In this document: positions 1 through 16,237 of the stretch, one piece after another | How the letters are laid out: each line of letters begins with the position of its first letter | Position numbering within the stretch: position 1 is the first letter of the stretch | Notes under the pieces: generated by a model | The model's input: the letters and a program-made list of their open reading frames with translations, nothing else | The model's database searches: none | Told to the model about the DNA's origin: nothing | From: Hepatocystis sp. ex Piliocolobus tephrosceles | Taxonomy: Eukaryota; Apicomplexa; Aconoidasida; Haemosporida; Plasmodiidae | DNA: 20,003 bases | Direction of reading: 5' to 3' | Assembly (NCBI GenBank): GCA_902459845.2 | Contig: CABPSV020000285.1 | Span: 1 to 20,003 of the forward strand | Position numbers and translations under genes: made by a program

Positions 1-245
1 AAAAAAAAAATTTATGGGCTTTTGTTTTATTTATTTTATTTTTTTTTTAGACAATACTTTTACAGTTTAGTAAAATATATGACCTCATTTTTTTTCGCTT
101 TATTTCTCATTCATTTATTACCATTTTGCTTATTACTTATTTCTCTTTTATATTTTACAATTTTATACCATTTTGATTTTTTTTTTTTTTAAACTTGCTG
201 TATAAAATAAATCGATTTTTAAGAAAAAAACATATTTTTTTATTT
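1..245. other. 3' flank of the 802-residue gene
   Basis: A/T-rich sequence beyond the stop codon of the minus-strand gene that ends at 246. It holds several short T runs and is presumably 3' untranslated and intergenic sequence. The short minus-strand open frame at 155-337 overlaps the real gene in another frame and is not supported. Confidence 0.5.
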
Positions 246-2654
246 TTATGGTATACTTTCATATTTATTGAATAGTGAAACAGACACAATTGTACGGAAA
301 ATAAAAAGAGGGATTTTAAAAAAAACAACACTATCAAATATTTGTTTATCAGTTTTTTCTGTTTCGTTACCTTTGTACATATTTAGAATTTTTAATTTTT
401 CATAAATAATTTTATTAAATGTATAATTACATATTTGAATATTCGTGTTATAATCTTCGTTAATTATATTATTAAAATAAAAATCAAAATAAAATTTTTT
501 TAATTTATTTATTAATTCATTAAATTCATTACTCTCTTCTATGCTGAATATATTTTGTTTAGTTTTTATGTTAGTTTCTTGCATTTTACAATAAAAAAAA
601 AATCTTTCTTTTTTTTTTAAATCTTTATTAAAATTTAATTTATTTTTTAAAATATAAATTACATTTTCTTCATTTTTATCTTTATCTTTTTCATTAATGT
701 TATGTTCCTTTTTTTTTTCGTTACTGTAATTTCCACTATTACATGTTGTATTATCGTAATTAACAACAACCCAATCCTTTTTAGGAGCATACAATTTTAT
801 TAATTCGCTACTTAATATGTTTTTATCACAATTCAAATTAATTAATTTACAGTAACATGAATATAAATTTTTTAATTCATCTGAATTGTTTAAACCAATA
901 GTTTTTGTTTTTTTTTCTCCATTTTTAAAAAAAAAATGATAAAAACAGGATAAAATGTATATTTCCTTTTTGTAAAAATGAGTCATGTTGCAAAAGACGA
1001 AGGGTTTTTTTTTTCGTCTTTGTTTGGGTAGAGATTGGTTTCTGTTGTTGTTGTTGTTGTTGTTGTTGCTGTTGTTGTTGTTGCTATTGCTGTTGTTGTT
1101 GTTGCTATTGCTGTTTCTACTGCTGTTGCTGTTTCTACTGCTGTTGGTTCTACTGTTTCTGCTGCTGTTGCTTCTGCTGTTACTGTTACTGTTGCTGCTT
1201 CTACTATTACTGTTGCTACCGTTGTTACTATCGCTACTGCTACTACTATTGCTGCTACTATTGCTGCTACTATTGCTGCTACTATTGCTGCTTCTATGAT
1301 TCCTACCATTTTTTACACTTGTGTGAGCACAATCCATGTCTACCATCTTAACCTCCTCACCTTTGAGTGGTAAATCTTCGTACAATAGACCCTCCCCCAC
1401 AGCATCATAAACATTTTCAAAAGAAGAGTCTAAGTAATTACATTCATAAGTATTTTTGTCATATATATATTTATTACATATTTTATTTTTATCTACATTA
1501 TATAAATATTCTTCATCTGAAATATTATTTACATAATGTGAAACAGTTTGTTTTTTAAATAAATTTAATTCTTTTTTTTTTATATGTTCAATATTATTTT
1601 TATTATTTATAAAAAACGCTCCATCGAAATTAATTTTAGGTATATATCTTTTTTTAATTCGTTCTTCTAATTCTTTTTGTTCTTTTATTTTAACTGTAAT
1701 CATATAATTGCGATATAATAACATATTTATGTTTTCATTCTCACAATATTGTTTATTATTATCATTATTATTGTGACCTGTATTTTTTATAATATTTTTT
1801 TTTATTTCTTCAACATTTTCTGAAATTTGAGAACTTATTTTTTGTTTATGTCCTACCACATATGTATTTTCAATAGGTGTCTGTTCTGTGTCCTTTTCAT
1901 TTTTATACATATGTACACCCTTTTCAACTGTATATGCTTCATGTTTTACTTGTACCTGTTCTCTATTAGTTACTTCTTGTAACGGTAGTTCTAATTTCGA
2001 AAAATAATTTTTTTTTTCCACTTTTTCATTGTACTCTTGTGTATAACTTATAGAGTTAAGATTTGAATTTGAAGATAAAGGTGTTGTCATAGGAGAGGAG
2101 CATGTGTTTCCTTTTTTTGAAACATTATATCTATTATAACTGTTGTAACTGTAACTGTTGTTGTTATTAATATTGTTCAGTATATGTGTCTCTATTTCTT
2201 TCTTTATATTAACATTAACACCTATAGGAACCCCATCAATATAATTGTGTTTTCTTAACAATGCATAAGATATACTATCATTAAAAAAAGTAAAACTAAT
2301 GTTATTATTATCCGTATAATCTTCTTCATATCTTACTATATTCTTTGTACTTATATCTTCATATATATTATCATCTTCATCAATATAATCATATAAATCT
2401 TTTTTAATTACATTTTCATTTTTATAAATACTCGATATATAATTACAAGGTTTAAATTTTGGTGCTTCCTCAATTATTTTTTTTTTTCTTTTTTTTTTTT
2501 CTATTATTTTTTTTTTCTTTTCATGAAATAACAAATTTTTGTAATAAATGTAAAAATCATAATCATCGTAATGTTTTCTTTTTTTTTTTAAAAATTCATT
2601 TTTTATTTCAGTTACATTCAAATCTGTAAGTGGGGTGCCTATAAAATCACTCAT
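246..2654 (-). CDS. Conserved-looking Plasmodium protein of unknown function, 802 residues, single exon
   Basis: I do not recognise this protein. The frame is open for 802 residues from an ATG at 2654 in an A-rich context (gagtaaaaATG) to a stop at 246. Residues 1-170 form a charged N-terminal block with a Lys-rich stretch at about 48-62 and a less biased segment (SYALLRKHNYIDGVPIGVN) near residues 130-150. The middle is Asn/Lys-rich. Residues about 453-538 are an almost pure Ser/Asn/Arg tract. A basic cluster (KQRRKKKPF) then opens a C-terminal block, about 540-802, which has aromatic, less repetitive sequence (DWVVVNYDN) and may be folded. No signal peptide or convincing membrane segment is visible. 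The two complex blocks separated by a low-complexity spacer suggest a real gene. The last ~45 residues follow an AAG-GTAACG site and could be intronic, but I found no good acceptor, so the simple stop is kept. The promoter region is shared with the divergent COG3 gene. Confidence 0.85.
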   Translation of the reverse strand: MSDFIGTPLTDLNVTEIKNEFLKKKRKHYDDYDFYIYYKNLLFHEKKKKIIEKKKRKKKIIEEAPKFKPCNYISSIYKNENVIKKDLYDYIDEDDNIYEDISTKNIVRYEEDYTDNNNISFTFFNDSISYALLRKHNYIDGVPIGVNVNIKKEIETHILNNINNNNSYSYNSYNRYNVSKKGNTCSSPMTTPLSSNSNLNSISYTQEYNEKVEKKNYFSKLELPLQEVTNREQVQVKHEAYTVEKGVHMYKNEKDTEQTPIENTYVVGHKQKISSQISENVEEIKKNIIKNTGHNNNDNNKQYCENENINMLLYRNYMITVKIKEQKELEERIKKRYIPKINFDGAFFINNKNNIEHIKKKELNLFKKQTVSHYVNNISDEEYLYNVDKNKICNKYIYDKNTYECNYLDSSFENVYDAVGEGLLYEDLPLKGEEVKMVDMDCAHTSVKNGRNHRSSNSSSNSSSNSSSNSSSSSDSNNGSNSNSRSSNSNSNSRSNSSRNSRTNSSRNSNSSRNSNSNNNNSNSNNNNSNNNNNNNNRNQSLPKQRRKKKPFVFCNMTHFYKKEIYILSCFYHFFFKNGEKKTKTIGLNNSDELKNLYSCYCKLINLNCDKNILSSELIKLYAPKKDWVVVNYDNTTCNSGNYSNEKKKEHNINEKDKDKNEENVIYILKNKLNFNKDLKKKERFFFYCKMQETNIKTKQNIFSIEESNEFNELINKLKKFYFDFYFNNIINEDYNTNIQICNYTFNKIIYEKLKILNMYKGNETEKTDKQIFDSVVFFKIPLFIFRTIVSVSLFNKYESIP
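1040..1300 (-). repeat. Coding Asn/Ser microsatellite tract
   Basis: On the plus strand this reads as imperfect trinucleotide runs (gtt, gct, act, tgc mixtures). On the coding minus strand they are AAC/AGC/AGT/AAT codons giving residues about 453-538 of the 802-residue protein, Ser-rich first and then almost pure Asn. The same DNA is open in other frames as poly-Leu and Ala/Val-rich strings, which are by-products of the trinucleotide period. Mixed codons suggest the tract has been held at protein level rather than being a fresh pure-triplet expansion. Confidence 0.85.
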
Positions 2655-4192: not shown

Positions 4193-7100
4193 ATGAAAGA
4201 AGAAAATAAAAGAGGAATAGAAAAAAAAGAAGAAGACGCAAATGAAAGAGGTGTTAACACGATAGGAGAGAAAGACCCAGAAGACCAGCTTTATGCCAAA
4301 CTATTTGAATATATAACTAGAATCGAAAATTTTTCTTTTGATAATGTAAATTATAAAAAAAAAAAAAAAAATGAAACGTGCGAGTGTAAAACACGCACAA
4401 ATGTGGATACGGTTGGTATGAGCAAAAATAGGAGATCAACAGAAGAGAAAAAGGTAAATAAGAAAAATGAGGAAAGTTGCAAAATAAAAAATAGAAAAGC
4501 ATATAATACTAATAAAGCGACATATGACACCAATACATTGTACACATGTATGGATAATATAAGTGAATATAACACATTTTCTTCCATTGAAAATGGAAGT
4601 GCAACAGATAATACTCCTCTTCGTTCTGAAAAAAATAAAAATAAAAAACAAAAGAACTTACATCGTAATTATTGTAATTACTTTTCCCAAATCGATGAAA
4701 AAATAAACAAGCATGATACAAAAAACAATTGTAGCTATTATGATTTGTCACGTAGTTCACATTATAATGAAAAAGCTTTTCAAAACAATGACGTAAATTT
4801 ATACACTCATAAAAAAAAACATGTTGATAAAACAAAAAAAAAACAAAATTGTTATAATAATTGTTATAACAACAATGGATATAACAACAATGGATATAAC
4901 AATGGATATAACAATGGATATAACAATGGATATAACAATGGATATAACAATGGATATAACAATGGATATAACAACAATGAATATAACAACAATGAATATA
5001 ACAACAATGGATATATTGGGAAAAAAAAAAAAAAGAAAAAAAAAAAAATACACATATTTAACAATAAAAATGGTGATATATATATGGAAATTGAAAATTA
5101 TTATTTAACTTATAAACTGAGTAGAAAAATGGGAGAACATAAACATATGAATGAGCTAAAACTTATAAAAAATGAAAGAACATATAATTTACCAGAAATA
5201 TATAAAACTATTGAAAATATTTTAAGTAGTTATAAATTTATTAAAAATGAATTACAAACATTAAAACAAAATAAACGATATATTTATAAAAACTTTTTTT
5301 CAATTTTTTTAAATTATTATTGTAAATATTCAGAAGTAAAATTAATGAAATTAAATAAAAAAATAATAGAACGACATTTGTTGTATTATATGAACACAGA
5401 ACATTTCGAAGTTATTTTAAATAACATAGAACGAGATGAATACAAATATTTTATTGAAATATATAATAACTACTTTTTACAAAAACACGATCCCGAAACG
5501 AATAATAATAGTAGTTATTTTGATAAAATGGAATATTCTTCAACGGATAATTCGACAAGTGACTCTTCTAATGACTCTGAGAACAACTCATACAATAATT
5601 TAACAAACAGTTCGGAAGAAAATGTAGAATGGGATGGAGAGGACGAACAGGATGGAGAGGACGAACAAGATGGAGAGGACGAACAAGATGAAGAAGACGA
5701 ACAAGATGAAGAAGATGAAGAAGATGGAGAAGATGAACAAGATGGAGAAGATGAACAAGATGGAGAAGACGAATTTTCCACTTTATCCGAACTAACAGAT
5801 AAAAAAAAGCACAACACATTTATGTCTACAAATAGATTAAATAAAAACAGGGACGACGACGAGTATTGCAAATATTACCATTCTCCCGAAAAAAAAGAAT
5901 TTTATAAAGACGAGTTGGATAATGAGAGCACAAGTGAGCAACTTACAAACAATTTTACAAAAGCGGTAGCAAGAGAGATCGCAAAAAATAAAAAATATAA
6001 ATTAAACAGTGACTCAAAAACAACTAAACATATTTTAGATTGTTTTTGTAAAGAATTTCATAAAAAAGGTTTTGAAAAAAAAAACCTAAGTAATGATCCT
6101 ATAATAGCTAATATTAATTTACAAACAAAATATTTAGCTCAAAGTTTAACTAAAGAATTTTTTAAAAAAGTAAAAAAAGACCCTAAAAAACATATAAAAA
6201 CAAAAAAAAAAAATTACCCGTCCAAAAATTACCCGTCCAAAAATTACCCGTCCAAAAATAACCCCTCCAAAAATAGTCCTTATAAGAATAACGAAATTTA
6301 TTACATACTTGAATACTCTGAAAAAGCTATAAAATTTTTTAAAAAAAATAATACATATTTTAATGCTAAAAATAAAATAACAAAATATCGAGCTATTATT
6401 AAAAGAGTATTAAAATGTTTTATAAATTTATTTAGAAGTGTTTTAAATAATACTGATTTGAATATAAAAAATGAAAGTATATGTACAAACATTAATTTTG
6501 CAGATAACAATATAAACTTACACCAGATAAATGAATACATATACACAGACAAAACTGAGTTACTACATTGTGCATATATATCAAATAATTACCAAAAATC
6601 AAATCAAAATTATAGTTGTACAATAAACAATAATAATAGTATTAACAAATTAGAAAGTCTTAATAATGTAATTAGTGATAATATGTTTCTAATGAATGAA
6701 AATAAAAAAAACGAAACCAAAGAAACTTATAACATTAAAGATGAATCAAAAGAAGCTACATTGATTAATGAAATAAATCAAATGGATAATACTACTAATG
6801 ACTCAGAAAATGCAGTTACAGTTGCAGTTGCAGCTGCAGTTACTAAATGCGTCGATACAAATGCCAATATAAATAAAAACGAAAAATCTGATATAAATAA
6901 ATTTATTACTCAAGCAGACAGCAGTTTTCTTACTTCCACTACAACTCATATGGACCATACGACTCATACAACCCATACGACTCATACAACCCATACGACT
7001 CATATGGACATTTGCACTGAAAACCAAACCAAATACAACACGAGAAATAAAAAAGAAAACAAAATAACATGTTTAAATAAATTAATTAAAGATAAAGAAT

Positions 7101-8813
7101 TATTTTTAACTAATGATGAAGATGTAATAAATGAAATATATAACAATGTGAATATAATTTATTTCAGTAAATATATAAATGTTGTAGAATACTATGAAAA
7201 ATTTCGAATAAAATTAAAATGTATGAACAGTGTCATAAAATTTATTGCATCCAAATCTATAATTGTTAATGATCATAATAATAATAATAACGATTTATAT
7301 GTTGATGAATTTAATTCCTTAGAAGATTTATATGTAAGTACAAGATTAAAAATATTAAATAATAATATTTTACCTCAATTTTATTCTTTCGAAACAAACG
7401 ATATATGTAAATATATTAAAAACATTTGTTTATTATCGATATATATTTCAAAATTAGAATTTAGTTTATTTATTGAAATATTTAATAATGACGTAGATGG
7501 ATGTATTAATACTATTTTAAAAGTTATTGGTTTGTCTGTATATGACACTATTAAAGATAATATATACGAATTAAACAATATAAAAATTATAAGAAAAATT
7601 ATTCAAATGATTTATATAGATATATTAGAAACATATACAGAAAGTATTTATAATATATTACGTGATTTTTTAAAAAAATTATGTACCAACTTAAAAGAAA
7701 GACTTTTATATATAATAGAGTTATACATTTCTTATTATACAAAAAATATACAAGCTTCAATTCCTTACGTGTGTTTCAAGCCTATCAAAAAAAAATTTAT
7801 CAACATAGTAAATGATTTTTTATATCAGAATTATTTAGAACCAACTGGGACGACTCATAATGTTGACGTTGACATAGGAGTCGGTGGTGATATTGATGAA
7901 GGCGTCGAGATTGATGAAGGCGTCGAGATTGATGAAGGCTTAGAGATTAATAGTGGTTCCAAGATTATTAGTGGTGTGAATGGAAATGGTAAAAAAAAAA
8001 AAATAACCACAAATTTGAATACTTGTGACATTATTAATGAGACTAATATAAATGTAAATATTGACCTAAAACTGAATAATAAAGTAAATGATCAATCACA
8101 TGATTATAGCACACCAAGTGATAATACATCAAGTGATAATACATTAAATGATAGTACATCAAGTGATAGTATATCGAGTGAAAATAATTATAACCAACAT
8201 GAATATAATATGAATATATTAAATGAATCTAACGTATATAAATCATTTAGTTTTTATAATAATAAATATAATAAAAATACAAGTTATAGTTTTTCTGGAA
8301 TTGATATAAATATTATTGGTACTATTATTATATTAAAAAATATTAATTTTATAATAGAAGAAAATACACTACAAGAAATTTATAAAGAATGCTTAGAAAA
8401 CACATTAAATTCCATAATATACATTTATAAACAACATTTAAAAATATATAATAATGATATGTTTAATGGTTGCTTATTTTTAATCAAAAACTTAAGTTTT
8501 TTACTTTATCTATTTTATAAAATCACAAAAGATAAACAGTTTTTTTATTTATACTTGGATAAAAAACTAACAAAACACTTGTTATTTCAACAAACTGGTT
8601 ATATAAAAAACAAAAATGAAAAATTAAAATCGAAACATATTGACACTAGTGGAAATAACAATAACTATAACAAAATGTTATCAGAAAATAAAAATTCGAT
8701 TTTCCATTTTTTTAAAAAAGTTTATAATACACCATCAAATATGGATATGCAAAATAAAACATTGTTATTATTTAATGAGGCCATTTACAATTTTACTATA
8801 ACAACTATCGCAG

Positions 8814-8844
<31 letters not shown>

Positions 8845-10789: not shown

Positions 10790-12286
10790 TTATACAGTTT
10801 CCTCAATTGGGAAATCAATCAAATAAACACCCTTATCTGAAGAGAAAATAATTTTGTTATTTTTATGCCTAATATAATATGGCCACTTAAAATAAAACAA
10901 ACCCGTAGGTAATTTTATACATTTATAAAATATAAATGTTGATAAATTAAAACTAAAAATTTGATTTTCAACTAATATAAATAACATATTTTCTAAAGAC
11001 TTATATATATCTAAAATAATTTTTTTTAATTTTTTAATTCTATACATATCTATTGCTTTTTTAAAATCAAATATAATTAATCTTTTTCCATTTTTTGCAA
11101 CAATAATTTTTTCATCGTCTAAAAATTTCCCATGACTAATAAATGTGGAAGAAAAATCAACACAAAAAATTAATTCATGTTTAGACGTTTGACAATTTAT
11201 ATAAATTTTTATAACTCTTATATGACATTTTCCAAAACTACTTTTATAACATAATAAATAATTTGCATTAAAATCAAATATAATTATATTTTTTAAAAAA
11301 TTTTTATAAAAATAACTAGTAAAATTATTTTTTATATCATAAATAAATAAATTTTTAGAATTATTAAATAAAATAAAATGTTCGAAATTTATAACTTGTT
11401 TATTATTTATTGTTTCTATATTAATAGTATTAATAAATTCGTAAGTTTTTACATTAAAAATATCAATACAATTTTCATGATAAACATATACATAATTTGT
11501 GTCTATATAAATGGATTGTATATTATTATTTCTAAACATACACAAAATTACGTATTTTTTTGGACTATTATCAATACTTTCTTCGGCTATATCATGCCTA
11601 CTGTTATTGACTACCTCATGATATGTGTCATTTGTTACATTGTCCGATACATCTTTTTTTTTTCCTTGTTTTTTTATATTGATAATTATGTTGTTATTTG
11701 TTTTATCTTGCATACTTTGTTTAGAGTTATTTATTTTACTCACTTCTGTATTATTGAAATCGGTATAACTATCAATTGAAATATAATCGTCTTTATTATT
11801 GAATTCGTCTTTACTTTTTAATTGTTCAAGTTCTGTTTTACTTGAATTTATCAACTCTATTTTAGTAGTACATTTTTCTTCATCTTGTTTATCACTATAT
11901 GTAATATCTGTATTTACTGCCTTATGTTTTTTTGTCGTTATTCTATATAAACACACTTTACCCGTTAATGTGCCTGCAAAAAAACAAAAAAAAAAAACAA
12001 TTACATAACCAATCGTAGTATACATACATATATAAGTAGGTATACATATATAAGTAGGTATACATATATAAGTAGGTATACATATAAACTTAATAATACC
12101 TGTACATATATAATGGTCGTTTGTATATAAAACAACTATTGGATCAGATAATAGTGTCTGTATACAATTGTATAAAAGTACACCTTCTTTTTTCTTTTTT
12201 GCTTCTTTTTTTTCTCCACAACTATAAAAACATAAATCCTTTTTCCACTTTAAACAATTATTAATAATTTTAGTTCTGTTCTTCAT
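10790..12286 (-). CDS. WD40-like beta-propeller protein of unknown function, two exons, 456 residues
   Basis: Exons are 12286-12100 and 11973-10790 (187+1184 nt = 456 codons plus stop). The joined reading TNDHYICTG-TLTGKVCLYRI has the shape of a WD40 blade (strand, Gly turn, strand ending in a hydrophobic-x-hydrophobic pair) and is interrupted by the intron. An Asn/Lys/Ser-rich linker occupies about 80-200. After it, residues 201-456 contain five or six further strand-rich repeats, for example NYVYVYHENCIDIFNVKTYE, ILFNNSKNLFIYDIKN, IIVAKNGKRLIIFDFKKA, MLFILVENQIFSFNLSTF and IIFSSDKGVYLIDF. The regular spacing of turns followed by hydrophobic strands ending IFD, IYD or LIDF fits a seven-bladed propeller. 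Strict WD dipeptides are absent, so the family within the propeller superfamily is unclear. Such proteins usually scaffold complexes, and I cannot name a partner. There is no signal peptide. Confidence 0.8.
   Translation of the reverse strand: MKNRTKIINNCLKWKKDLCFYSCGEKKEAKKKKEGVLLYNCIQTLLSDPIVVLYTNDHYICTGIIKFICIPTYICIPTYICIPTYICMYTTIGYVIVFFFCFFAGTLTGKVCLYRITTKKHKAVNTDITYSDKQDEEKCTTKIELINSSKTELEQLKSKDEFNNKDDYISIDSYTDFNNTEVSKINNSKQSMQDKTNNNIIINIKKQGKKKDVSDNVTNDTYHEVVNNSRHDIAEESIDNSPKKYVILCMFRNNNIQSIYIDTNYVYVYHENCIDIFNVKTYEFINTINIETINNKQVINFEHFILFNNSKNLFIYDIKNNFTSYFYKNFLKNIIIFDFNANYLLCYKSSFGKCHIRVIKIYINCQTSKHELIFCVDFSSTFISHGKFLDDEKIIVAKNGKRLIIFDFKKAIDMYRIKKLKKIILDIYKSLENMLFILVENQIFSFNLSTFIFYKCIKLPTGLFYFKWPYYIRHKNNKIIFSSDKGVYLIDFPIEETV
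11974..12099 (-). other. In-frame, stop-free intron (126 nt) of the propeller gene
   Basis: Donor ACAG|GTATTATT at 12099 and acceptor tttttttgcag|GCACATT at 11974, both phase 1. The length is a multiple of three and there is no stop in the gene's frame, so the unspliced reading also stays open (498 residues). It would insert a Cys-Ile-Pro-Thr-Tyr repeat and a Phe/Val-rich stretch into the middle of a propeller blade, which argues for splicing. The T-rich tract before the acceptor supports this. The intron holds three 18-bp tandem copies of aagtaggtatacatatat (plus strand, starting 12034, 12052 and 12070). Confidence 0.75.
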
Positions 12287-14148: not shown

Positions 14149-14960
14149 TCATAAATCTTGTAGAATATTTTCATCCTCATCTTCGTCTTCTTCATCTTTT
14201 CCTTTTATGAATGGCTCAAGTAAGTACGATGTAAAATCTATGGTGTTCGATCTTTCATTTAAATTTTTATCATATTTCCAAAAACCGTAAAGAGATAAAT
14301 TAACTAAATAAGTTTCAGAAAATTGTAAATTCTGTATATATATATGAGCAGAATGAACATCCAGCTCTTCTAAGTGCCTTATTATCTTTTCAGTTCGACA
14401 GTGTTTTATATCCTCAACATAACCTACCAGTAATAATTAAAAAAATGCATTAAAAAAAAATAAATAAATAATAAAAGACACAAATAGGAGCATATTATTT
14501 ATACATCAGATTAAAAAAAAAAAAAAAAAAAAGTATGTATGTATGTATGTATGTATACATACACATGCACATCTAATTAAAAATGTGTCAAATATAAGAA
14601 AAACACGGCACTTTTACGTATACACGCAGATATGTATAACTTCAAACTTAAACGCACCTGCCACTTTTGCCATATACTTAAAATAACTTTTTTGACCAAC
14701 TGTTTCGATAGGAGTAGCTTTTAAAAAAACTTTTTGATCAATAAACATATAACATATTTCAAAAAAATAAGGAGATGGTAATTCAAACAGTTCATTTGTG
14801 TTTTTATATTCTTCTGTTTTTATATTTACAAAATTTGATATATGAAACCAAAAAGGAAATTCAACATCAACATATGTAAAAGAAGAAAGAACAATTGCTA
14901 TATAAATTGGTAACCACTGTCTTTCTCCTGCTTTTATTGATTTTATGTTGAATCCCTTCA

Positions 14961-15011
<51 letters not shown>

Positions 15012-16237
15012 TGATAATTGAAAAAAGATTGAGTTAATAAGCTCGTACATGAGTAAATAAAGTAATAAAATAATGTAATCGCCCAAGTTCATATATAATC
15101 GTCCAAGCTTATATATAAACAATGAAATTCGAATAAACAAACGATTACATAAAACACACTCATAAAATGGCGAACATGTTTATTAAAATTTACATACATC
15201 TATTTAGCTTCTTTCTACAGTTTTATTTATTTATTTGTTTGTTTTTTTATTTTTTTTTTTTTTTTTTTTTTATTCAAGTTTTCCATTACCTCAATAAATT
15301 CTATAGCTACATCCGGAATGTCGACTAACGCTTTTACTACAACTAACTCTCCTAGAGCCTTATCATAAATTGACATATTAATAGCATCGTTTAAGAATAA
15401 CTTAGCATATTGTATATTAGTATAATGATATGAAGAATTGAATTTTAATGGTAAATATTCTATATCTATGTCAATATTAACTAAAGCTTTATTTATTACA
15501 GTGGGTCTACTTATATCTATTGTATCAATATATATTTTTTCATTAAATATTGATAAATCATTTTCTCCTATATCTATATTTTCTAAATATGAATATACGT
15601 TATGTATATTTTCTCTACAATTAAAATCATTATTTTTTTTTGATCTGATATATATTCCATTATTTAATACATATTCATATAAATTATTTGGTAACGGTAT
15701 AACATCAGCATAAGACATTAGAGTAATATAAATATTAAAATATCTATCATGTATAGCTTTAAAAACTAATATTTTTATTTCTGTTTTATAACTATCTTCT
15801 TTTTCATTATTTTCATTACTCTCCAAATCATATAAATTACTTTCAATTTTATCAATTAATGATTCAGCTATCATTTTTGTATTATCATCAATTTTTAAAT
15901 TTTTATTACCATATAATAACTGATTACGTAAATATTGAATATAATAAAAGGATATACATTTTTCAGTATTTTTATATGGTAAAGCAGGAAAATCAACTAC
16001 TACTACATTCTGGATTTGATTTTGATTTACGTTATCTTGTCTTTGACCTCTACCCGTTGGGCTATAATTACTATACGGAGTACTGCCATCTTCGTTATGT
16101 GCTCTTCTTGCATTTTTCCTGTTCAAATTCAATAAACTTTTATGACCTAAAGTACTACCATCTCGTAATATATCCTTTGTCGATACTCTTTTTTTGGGGT
16201 TTTGTTTTTTTTTAAAAATGGAAAATACATCATCCAT
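14149..16237 (-). CDS. PSF2: GINS replication-complex subunit: Psf2-like C-terminus joined to a possible Psf1/Sld5-like N-terminus, three exons, 506 residues
   Basis: Exons are 16237-15290, 14955-14658 and 14423-14149 (948+298+275 nt = 506 codons plus stop; junction phases 0 and 1). GINS joins Cdc45 and MCM in the replicative helicase in the nucleus. The Psf2 call rests on residues about 300-470. LPIYIAIVL (331-339) corresponds to Psf2's VPLWLAxxL. ELPSPYFFEI (374-383) corresponds to its MPSPYY element, with spacing from the first motif close to yeast and human Psf2. VEDIKHCRTEKI (418-429) followed by HIYIQNLQFSE (442-452) matches the D-x-x-R-x-x-K...H...NL...E signature of the helical A-domain. 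An acidic tail (about 490-506) resembles that of yeast Psf2. Met288 to the end is about the size of a whole Psf2. Residues 1-80 are basic with TP and SP sites at 53-54 and 59-60. Residues 85-287 contain a helical part (about 95-195) and then FNEKIYIDTID...YLPLKFNSSYHY...AKLFLNDAI, which resembles the Psf1/Sld5 C-terminal B-domain. Exon 2 has no usable Met near its start, so it must be joined to exon 1. Confidence 0.78.
14424..14657 (-). other. GINS-like gene intron 2 (234 nt)
   Basis: Donor GCAG|GTGCGT at 14657 and acceptor ttactggtag|GTTATG at 14424, phase 1 on both sides, giving VAG-YVEDI. Reading through instead gives a stop soon after (frame ends at 14614). The intron carries a short TATG/CATA tetranucleotide run near 14533-14560. 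Confidence 0.78.
14956..15289 (-). other. GINS-like gene intron 1 (334 nt) with a 48-nt poly-T before the acceptor
   Basis: Donor GAG|GTAATG at 15289, acceptor ...tttttgtgaag|GGATTC at 14956, phase 0. On the coding strand, 48 consecutive T (plus-strand A run 14962-15009) end five bases before the acceptor AG, an extreme polypyrimidine tract. Reading through gives a Lys-rich tail and stop at 15227, cutting the protein to 336 residues. Confidence 0.75.

What the first reader, a model, noticed from the sequence alone, without database searches (positions are those of the whole stretch)
14149..16237. Possible natural fusion of two GINS subunits in one polypeptide
The spliced protein carries a Psf2-like B-A module (about 288-506, roughly the size of free-standing Psf2). 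It is preceded by about 287 residues that look like an A-B module: a helical segment (about 95-195), then a strand-rich segment with IYID and LKFNSSYHY...AKLFLNDA, which resembles the Psf1/Sld5 B-domain. Elsewhere in eukaryotes the four GINS subunits are separate proteins. A fusion would fix the stoichiometry of two subunits and leave the parasite lacking one separate gene. The Psf2 part is the firmer half. The Psf1/Sld5 part is inference from short motifs.
Basis: partly seen in the sequence, partly recalled or inferred. Interest (0 to 1): 0.78.

Follow-up and report, generated by a model that had tools for sequence, protein, structure and literature searches.

The report
Fused two-subunit GINS protein, malaria relatives
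In malaria parasites and their relatives, one gene appears to encode two neighbouring parts of the DNA-unwinding machine (Sld5 and Psf2) as a single chain; the Psf2 half is near certain, the Sld5 half is likely but not proven, and malaria parasites carry two diverged versions of the gene.

The parts
15290..16237 (-). Exon 1: residues 1-316 (tail, Sld5-like module, junction, first ~32 residues of the Psf2 module)
   Evidence: spliced translation identical to P0001
14956..15289 (-). Intron 1 (334 bp, GT..AG, 80.5% A+T); its site, after residue 316, is inside the Psf2 fold
   Evidence: database proteins P0019 and P0021 diverge at the same place, as if reading into an intron
14658..14955 (-). Exon 2: residues 317-416 (most of the Psf2 B-domain, start of its A-domain)
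14424..14657 (-). Intron 2 (234 bp, GT..AG, 76.9% A+T)
   Evidence: the paralog model P0030 has a low-complexity insert exactly here
14149..14423 (-). Exon 3: end of the Psf2 A-domain and acidic C-terminal tail, stop codon at 14149-14151
15986..16237 (-). Residues 1-84: basic, less conserved tail, predicted disordered
   Evidence: pLDDT under 50 for residues 1-81; median identity 46% in 17 window-type orthologs
15698..15985 (-). Residues 85-180: three-helix segment resembling the A-domain of Sld5
15440..15670 (-). Residues 190-266: strand-containing, B-domain-like segment (low model confidence)
   Evidence: median identity 77% in 17 window-type orthologs, 32% in 10 paralogs, 23% in 9 piroplasm proteins
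15443..15460 (-). Residues 260-265: E-(Y/F/L/M)-L-P-x-K; E, L, P and K in 39 of 39 aligned rows
15386..15439 (-). Residues 267-284: junction between the two modules, start of a long helix (268-295)
14248..15385 (-). Residues 285-474 (interrupted by both introns): complete Psf2 B-A module
14152..14247 (-). Residues 475-506: C-terminal tail ending in an acidic stretch

Best explanation
The gene encodes a natural Sld5-Psf2 fusion: an AB-type, Sld5-like GINS module (about residues 85-266) joined through a short junction to a complete BA-type Psf2 (285-474). In the human GINS tetramer Sld5 and Psf2 are direct neighbours and the B-domain of Sld5 faces Psf2 over a broad surface, so the fusion makes an existing contact covalent and fixes a 1:1 ratio. 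Most likely the chain assembles with Psf1 and Psf3 into a three-chain GINS that activates MCM2-7 with Cdc45. The fusion predates the split of haemosporidians and piroplasms. In the haemosporidian stem the whole fused gene duplicated; the window copy is probably the version enriched in sexual stages. Shown: gene structure, Psf2 identity, conserved architecture, two paralog families. Inferred: Sld5 identity, assembly partners, stage use.
For: Psf2 half; local alignment to human Psf2 z 9.2, 0 of 300 shuffles as high, while Sld5, Psf1 and Psf3 score at noise (human sequences typed from recall). One transcript: the exon 1/2 junction lies inside Psf2, and five complete open frames of 491-499 aa sit on contigs of 1599-3333 bases; three of the five contigs have fewer spare bases (123, 186, 426) than the 568 bp of intron in the window gene. 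Sld5-like half: in the structure comparison of residues 79-296 Sld5 chains fill ranks 1-6 and 10 of 50 rows (2q9q_B: 73 residues at 2.2 A); rows show the best chain of each entry, so in ten GINS-holding entries that chain was Sld5. In the per-chain Foldseek list 8 of the top 50 rows are Sld5 chains and none is a Psf1 chain, all with E above 1. Residue offsets of the superpositions on human Sld5 (70 at the start, 81 at the end, from the ranges for 2q9q_B, 2e9x_D, 6xtx_D) equal those of a separate HMM alignment (residues 116-174 to Sld5 46-93). In 30 overlapping subsampled profiles human Sld5 outscored human Psf1 in 30 and fell in that register at both ends in 19. Geometry: Sld5-Psf2 is a natural contact pair, stated in PMC3114041 (section 7 read). 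Conserved architecture. A database label for the Babesia duncani protein is 'bifunctional GINS subunit'.
Confidence: 0.74

Rival explanations
1. Psf2 with a lineage-specific N-terminal extension: residues 85-284 are a helical domain of unrelated origin that gained a role in the apicomplexan replisome, and Sld5 is a separate diverged gene.
For: No significant sequence match of the N-terminal half to Sld5 or Psf1; modest structure scores near unrelated helical bundles; the N-terminal half is less conserved than Psf2 between the two families and in piroplasms; [quoted passage not shown]
Against: Sld5, not generic bundles, fills the first six structure rows; register agrees between sequence and structure; the length and helix-then-strand order fit an AB-type subunit; the B-like part is as conserved as Psf2 within the window-type orthologs (77% against 79%).
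Confidence: 0.19
2. Psf1-Psf2 fusion: the AB-type module is Psf1 rather than Sld5.
For: Psf1 has the same A-B order; short Psf1 alignments around the third helix recur at offset 82 in many of the 30 subsamples, always with negative scores; the profile of all rows aligned 31 columns to Psf1 by hhalign at shuffle level (6 of 40 shuffles as high).
Against: Sld5 was the best chain in ten GINS-holding entries, and no Psf1 chain is in the top 50 of the per-chain Foldseek list against eight Sld5 chains; human Psf1 scored below human Sld5 in 30 of 30 subsamples; the contacts named for human GINS are Sld5-Psf1, Psf2-Psf3, Sld5-Psf2 and Psf1-Psf3, so Psf1 is not the adjacent partner of Psf2 (PMC3114041).
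Confidence: 0.06
3. Gene-model artefact: two neighbouring genes (an upstream helical protein and Psf2) joined by a wrong splice prediction.
For: Exon 1 would give a 336-aa protein if intron 1 were retained (ORF 15227-16237), and two database proteins diverge at that point (P0019, P0021).
Against: The Psf2 fold begins about 32 residues before the junction, in exon 1; five complete joined frames on short contigs; the same joined architecture in haemosporidians and piroplasms.
Confidence: 0.01

Closest known systems
Psf2 (GINS2), BA-type GINS subunit (human 2eho/2e9x, yeast, C. elegans 8ouw_B)
   Different: Carries about 284 extra N-terminal residues; the Trp of P-L-W-L-A is Tyr (36 of 36 rows covering it); acidic C-terminal tail.
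Sld5 (GINS4), AB-type GINS subunit
   Same: Three predicted helices superpose on human Sld5 21-99 (73 residues, 2.2 A) in the register found by HMM alignment; a strand-containing segment follows, as in A-B order.
   Different: No significant sequence match; shorter stretch between helix 3 and the first strand (human strand position recalled); B-part not confidently modelled; fused to Psf2.
Archaeal GINS51 and GINS23 (2:2 tetramer)
   Same: One AB-type and one BA-type module, as in the two archaeal chains (PMC3114041, passages and section 7 seen).
   Different: Here both modules are in one chain; the BA module is specifically Psf2-like, not an undivided GINS23.
'Bifunctional GINS subunit' of Babesia duncani (P0042) and 'DNA replication complex GINS protein, putative' of Plasmodium
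   Same: Same family, collinear; complete entries mostly 469-534 aa.
   Different: These are database labels seen in listings; no subunit is named in them, and no experimental work on them was seen.

Membership tests
Psf2 | BA order: small beta B-domain followed by the GINS helical bundle | tested here: met
Psf2 | Pfam PF05916 helical bundle above curated cut-off | tested here: met
   32.9 bits against 22.3, residues 352-470
Psf2 | Closer to Psf2 than to Psf3 | tested here: met
   Profile hits six PSF2 chains and no PSF3 among ten listed; local alignment z 9.2 against 0.3 (human sequences typed from recall)
Psf2 | Trp47 conserved in BA-type subunits (PMC3114041) | tested here: not met
   Tyr in 36 of 36 rows with a residue there; 3 of 39 rows are gapped. 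The paper calls its own conservation analysis preliminary, so I do not take this Trp as strictly defining; filing as Psf2 rests on the fold and the sequence matches.
Sld5 | N-terminal GINS A-domain (helical) | tested here: inconclusive
Sld5 | C-terminal B-domain (Pfam SLD5_C, PF16922) | tested here: inconclusive
   No SLD5_C match in any protein scanned; short strands in the expected order but low confidence
Sld5 | Significant sequence similarity to Sld5 | tested here: not met
   No significant score by Pfam, PDB phmmer/hmmsearch, hhalign or HMM against shuffles. So the half is called Sld5-like, not filed as Sld5.
Psf1 | Psf1 fold or PSF1_C (PF24997) | tested here: inconclusive
   No Psf1 row among the 50 listed (best chain of each entry only), which does not exclude it; no PSF1_C in the proteins scanned or in the incomplete genome
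GINS complex | Physical assembly with the other GINS subunits, Cdc45 and MCM | not testable with these tools
   Needs purification or imaging
Fusion that replaces a separate gene | No separate Sld5 in the same genome | tested here: inconclusive
   Four Sld5 or Psf1 protein queries and two Pfam families found nothing, but the held genome lacks even the paralog P0030 and the search is insensitive

The most novel reading that the evidence does not exclude
The GINS of haemosporidians and piroplasms is a three-chain complex built on a fused Sld5-Psf2 chain, and malaria parasites duplicated this chain into two stage-specialised versions, so that the replicative helicase changes its GINS scaffold between asexual replication and the very fast genome replication of sexual stages. 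(A more extreme version, about 0.05, is that GINS is reduced to two fused chains: a homodimer in piroplasms and a pair of paralogs in haemosporidians, as in archaeal 2:2 GINS.)
Probability: 0.3. Interest if true: 0.82.

Novelty: new variant of a known kind. Interest (0 to 1): 0.6.

Why it matters
GINS is described as a heterotetramer of four subunits in eukaryotes (PMC3114041), and Plasmodium GINS has been called only putatively identified (PMC5872521). A fused, ancient and duplicated Sld5-Psf2 chain would help explain why Sld5 is hard to find by sequence in these parasites, would define what the parasite helicase is made of, and would make a direct question testable: whether malaria parasites use different CMG helicases for asexual and sexual replication.

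Tried and rejected
Sequence proof of Sld5: hhalign of four N-terminal sub-profiles against Sld5 and Psf1 gave nothing clear. In one search three of them (piroplasm, window-type, all) were compared with Sld5, Psf1 and Psf2 against 40 column shuffles each. The two best were piroplasm against Sld5, 1 of 40 shuffles as high but over only 8 columns, and piroplasm against human Psf2, also 1 of 40. Local alignment of P0021 with human Sld5 looked high (10, 25 and 12 of 2000 shuffles as high with three matrices), but its register disagrees with the structure. In a table of 39 single sequences the highest was P0039 against human Sld5 (z 4.6; 5 of 2000 shuffles as high), also in another register. Of the five single sequences inspected, P0038 lies in the structural register throughout, with its W-A-R-D-Q on W-M-N-E-K of Sld5; P0004 and P0009 match it along helix 3 only; P0039 and P0021 do not. 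I do not count these as evidence. A by-eye match of the Babesia B-segment to the Sld5 B-domain is a lead only.

Separate GINS subunits in the own genome: Pfam Sld5_C and PSF1_C, human and plant Sld5 and Psf1 found nothing. A Psf3 candidate (L001) is weak: Pfam E 0.0033 under the cut-off, no PDB GINS match, alignment to human Psf3 z 1.9, 19 of 300 shuffles as high. One search shows the genome is incomplete, so these blanks carry little weight.

Literature: ten searches. In what they listed I saw no paper on a GINS fusion in Apicomplexa; three listings were cut (20 of 190; 40 of 350; 15 of 25), and the library holds open-licence papers only. PF3D7_1335500 gave no paper. In PMC3307487 the terms Plasmodium and Apicomplexa do not occur. 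The main texts of PMC5457135 and PMC11750109 hold no GINS term.

Full report
What is there. On the minus strand, 16237-15290, 14955-14658 and 14423-14149 join in frame into a 506-aa protein; both introns are GT..AG, 334 and 234 bp, with 80.5% and 76.9% A+T against 71-76% in the exons. The product is identical to an NCBI protein of Hepatocystis sp. ex Piliocolobus tephrosceles, listed as 'conserved protein, unknown function' (P0001).

One chain, one transcript. Intron 1 falls after residue 316, some 32 residues into the Psf2 fold, so exon 2 alone cannot make a complete Psf2 and exon 1 carries its beginning. Relatives P0019 and P0021 diverge at the same site, as if reading into an intron. Five relatives with uninterrupted frames of 491-499 aa (P0015-P0018, P0020) come from contigs of 1599-3333 bases in a source labelled 'lgn'; three contigs have 123, 186 and 426 bases beyond the frame, less than the 568 bp of the window gene's two introns. 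I take these as spliced RNA; the label is not explained by the tool.

Register test. The superpositions on human Sld5 have the same end points: 2q9q_B model 13..102 to 21..99, 2e9x_D 13..103 to 21..100, 6xtx_D 13..98 to 21..95; model residue n is protein residue n+78, so offsets are 70 at the start and 81 at the end. An HMM of 39 N-terminal sequences, which knows nothing of the superposition, aligns residues 116-174 to human Sld5 46-93: offsets 70 and 81. The score is only 4.1 bits. Among 8 real GINS sequences and 960 shuffles, human Sld5 ranked third and first of the real ones; the top shuffle scored 10.4 bits. The piroplasm profile aligns in the same register to human Sld5 when read through alignment A5, but its better match, plant Sld5, lies elsewhere. 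In 30 subsampled profiles (13-15 sequences each, overlapping, so not independent) human Sld5 beat human Psf1 in 30, 19 fell in the structural register at both ends, 8 matched at one end only and 3 lay elsewhere with scores as good. Against: the window-type sub-profile aligned elsewhere, the paralog sub-profile gave no human Sld5 row, yeast Sld5 stayed at noise, the best single sequences are split over registers, and no other sequence method reached significance.

Geometry. PMC3114041 (section 7 read; [quoted passage not shown] An A-B module followed by a B-A module puts the Sld5 B-domain next to Psf2 in sequence as in space.

Spread and duplication. The three homolog searches returned 21, 28 and 11 proteins, 42 in all. 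The 13 named Plasmodium entries of the first search are 69-76% identical to the query. The second search revealed another family of the same architecture (P0020, P0022-P0032), including a second Hepatocystis protein (P0030, 534 aa) and P. falciparum (P0029), about 36% identical to the window protein. The third gave one entry for each of nine named piroplasm species; the Babesia duncani entry is named 'bifunctional GINS subunit'. Entries are clusters at 90% identity, so this is not a copy count. In a tree of 40 rows (P0019 and P0041, fragments, left out) the window-type family (18), the second family (12) and piroplasms (9) are each one side of a strongly supported branch. The root is not tested, and the tool flags long branches (P0021, P0042); with piroplasms as outgroup the duplication falls in the haemosporidian stem. 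Both families have Psf2-type C-terminal halves (z 9.2 and 9.0), so the second is not a disguised Psf3. Within the window-type family the B-like segment (median 77%) and the junction (83%) are as conserved as Psf2 (79%), the helical segment less (65%; 17 orthologs). Further out the N-terminal half is clearly less conserved: helical 30%, B-like 32%, Psf2 45% against the 10 paralogs, and 14%, 23%, 34% against the 9 piroplasm proteins.

Stage. In PMC7973279 (passages seen) PBANKA_1349400, 'candidate DNA replication complex GINS protein', is third in the table of the most down-regulated transcripts (-31.6-fold) in uis12(-) blood stages, a mutant with about 80% fewer gametocytes. I infer that it is the window-type ortholog from the P. 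gaboni tag PGSY75_1335500 and from recalled synteny with TRAP (PF3D7_1335900, PBANKA_1349800); no call checked this. It suggests gametocyte enrichment, sex unresolved; no expression data for the other paralog were seen.

What could not be settled. Whether separate Sld5 or Psf1 genes exist: six genome searches were blank, but the held genome (12.4 Mb, 611 contigs) gave no own copy of P0030, and even this window's Psf2 exon reaches only E 0.5 with PF05916. A Psf3-like ORF (L001) is a weak candidate.

Verdict. Psf2: near certain. AB-type Sld5-like module fused to it: likely (0.74). Fusion ancient and duplicated in haemosporidians: well supported as to architecture. Stage-specialised GINS: an attractive inference.

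Noticed in passing
P0020, P0022-P0032; P0030 in Hepatocystis: A second, ancient haemosporidian paralog of the whole fused protein (~36% identical), so malaria parasites carry two fused GINS chains.
   Followed up: partly
PMC7973279, Table 2: P. berghei PBANKA_1349400, probably the window gene's ortholog (inferred), is among the most reduced transcripts in a gametocyte-poor mutant, pointing to sexual-stage expression.
   Followed up: partly
P0030, around residue 416 onward: The public model of the Hepatocystis paralog carries a DIHMGIHI-type low-complexity insert exactly at the intron-2 site of the family, probably an unspliced intron in the annotation.
   Followed up: no
L001 1150-1830 (G000:C1, around 24008-24289): A 226-codon ORF with weak PF05916 similarity (E 0.0033, under the cut-off), a candidate separate Psf3.
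   Followed up: partly
window 15443-15460 (residues 260-265): E-x-L-P-x-K is the only stretch with columns invariant in all 39 rows (E, L, P, K) and lies at the junction of the two modules; its role is unknown.
   Followed up: no
window 10790-12286 (-), 4193-8824 (+), 246-2654 (-): Neighbouring ORFs: one with a sub-threshold CNH domain (E 4e-4), two large ones without any Pfam match at E 0.1.
   Followed up: no
   Followed up: no
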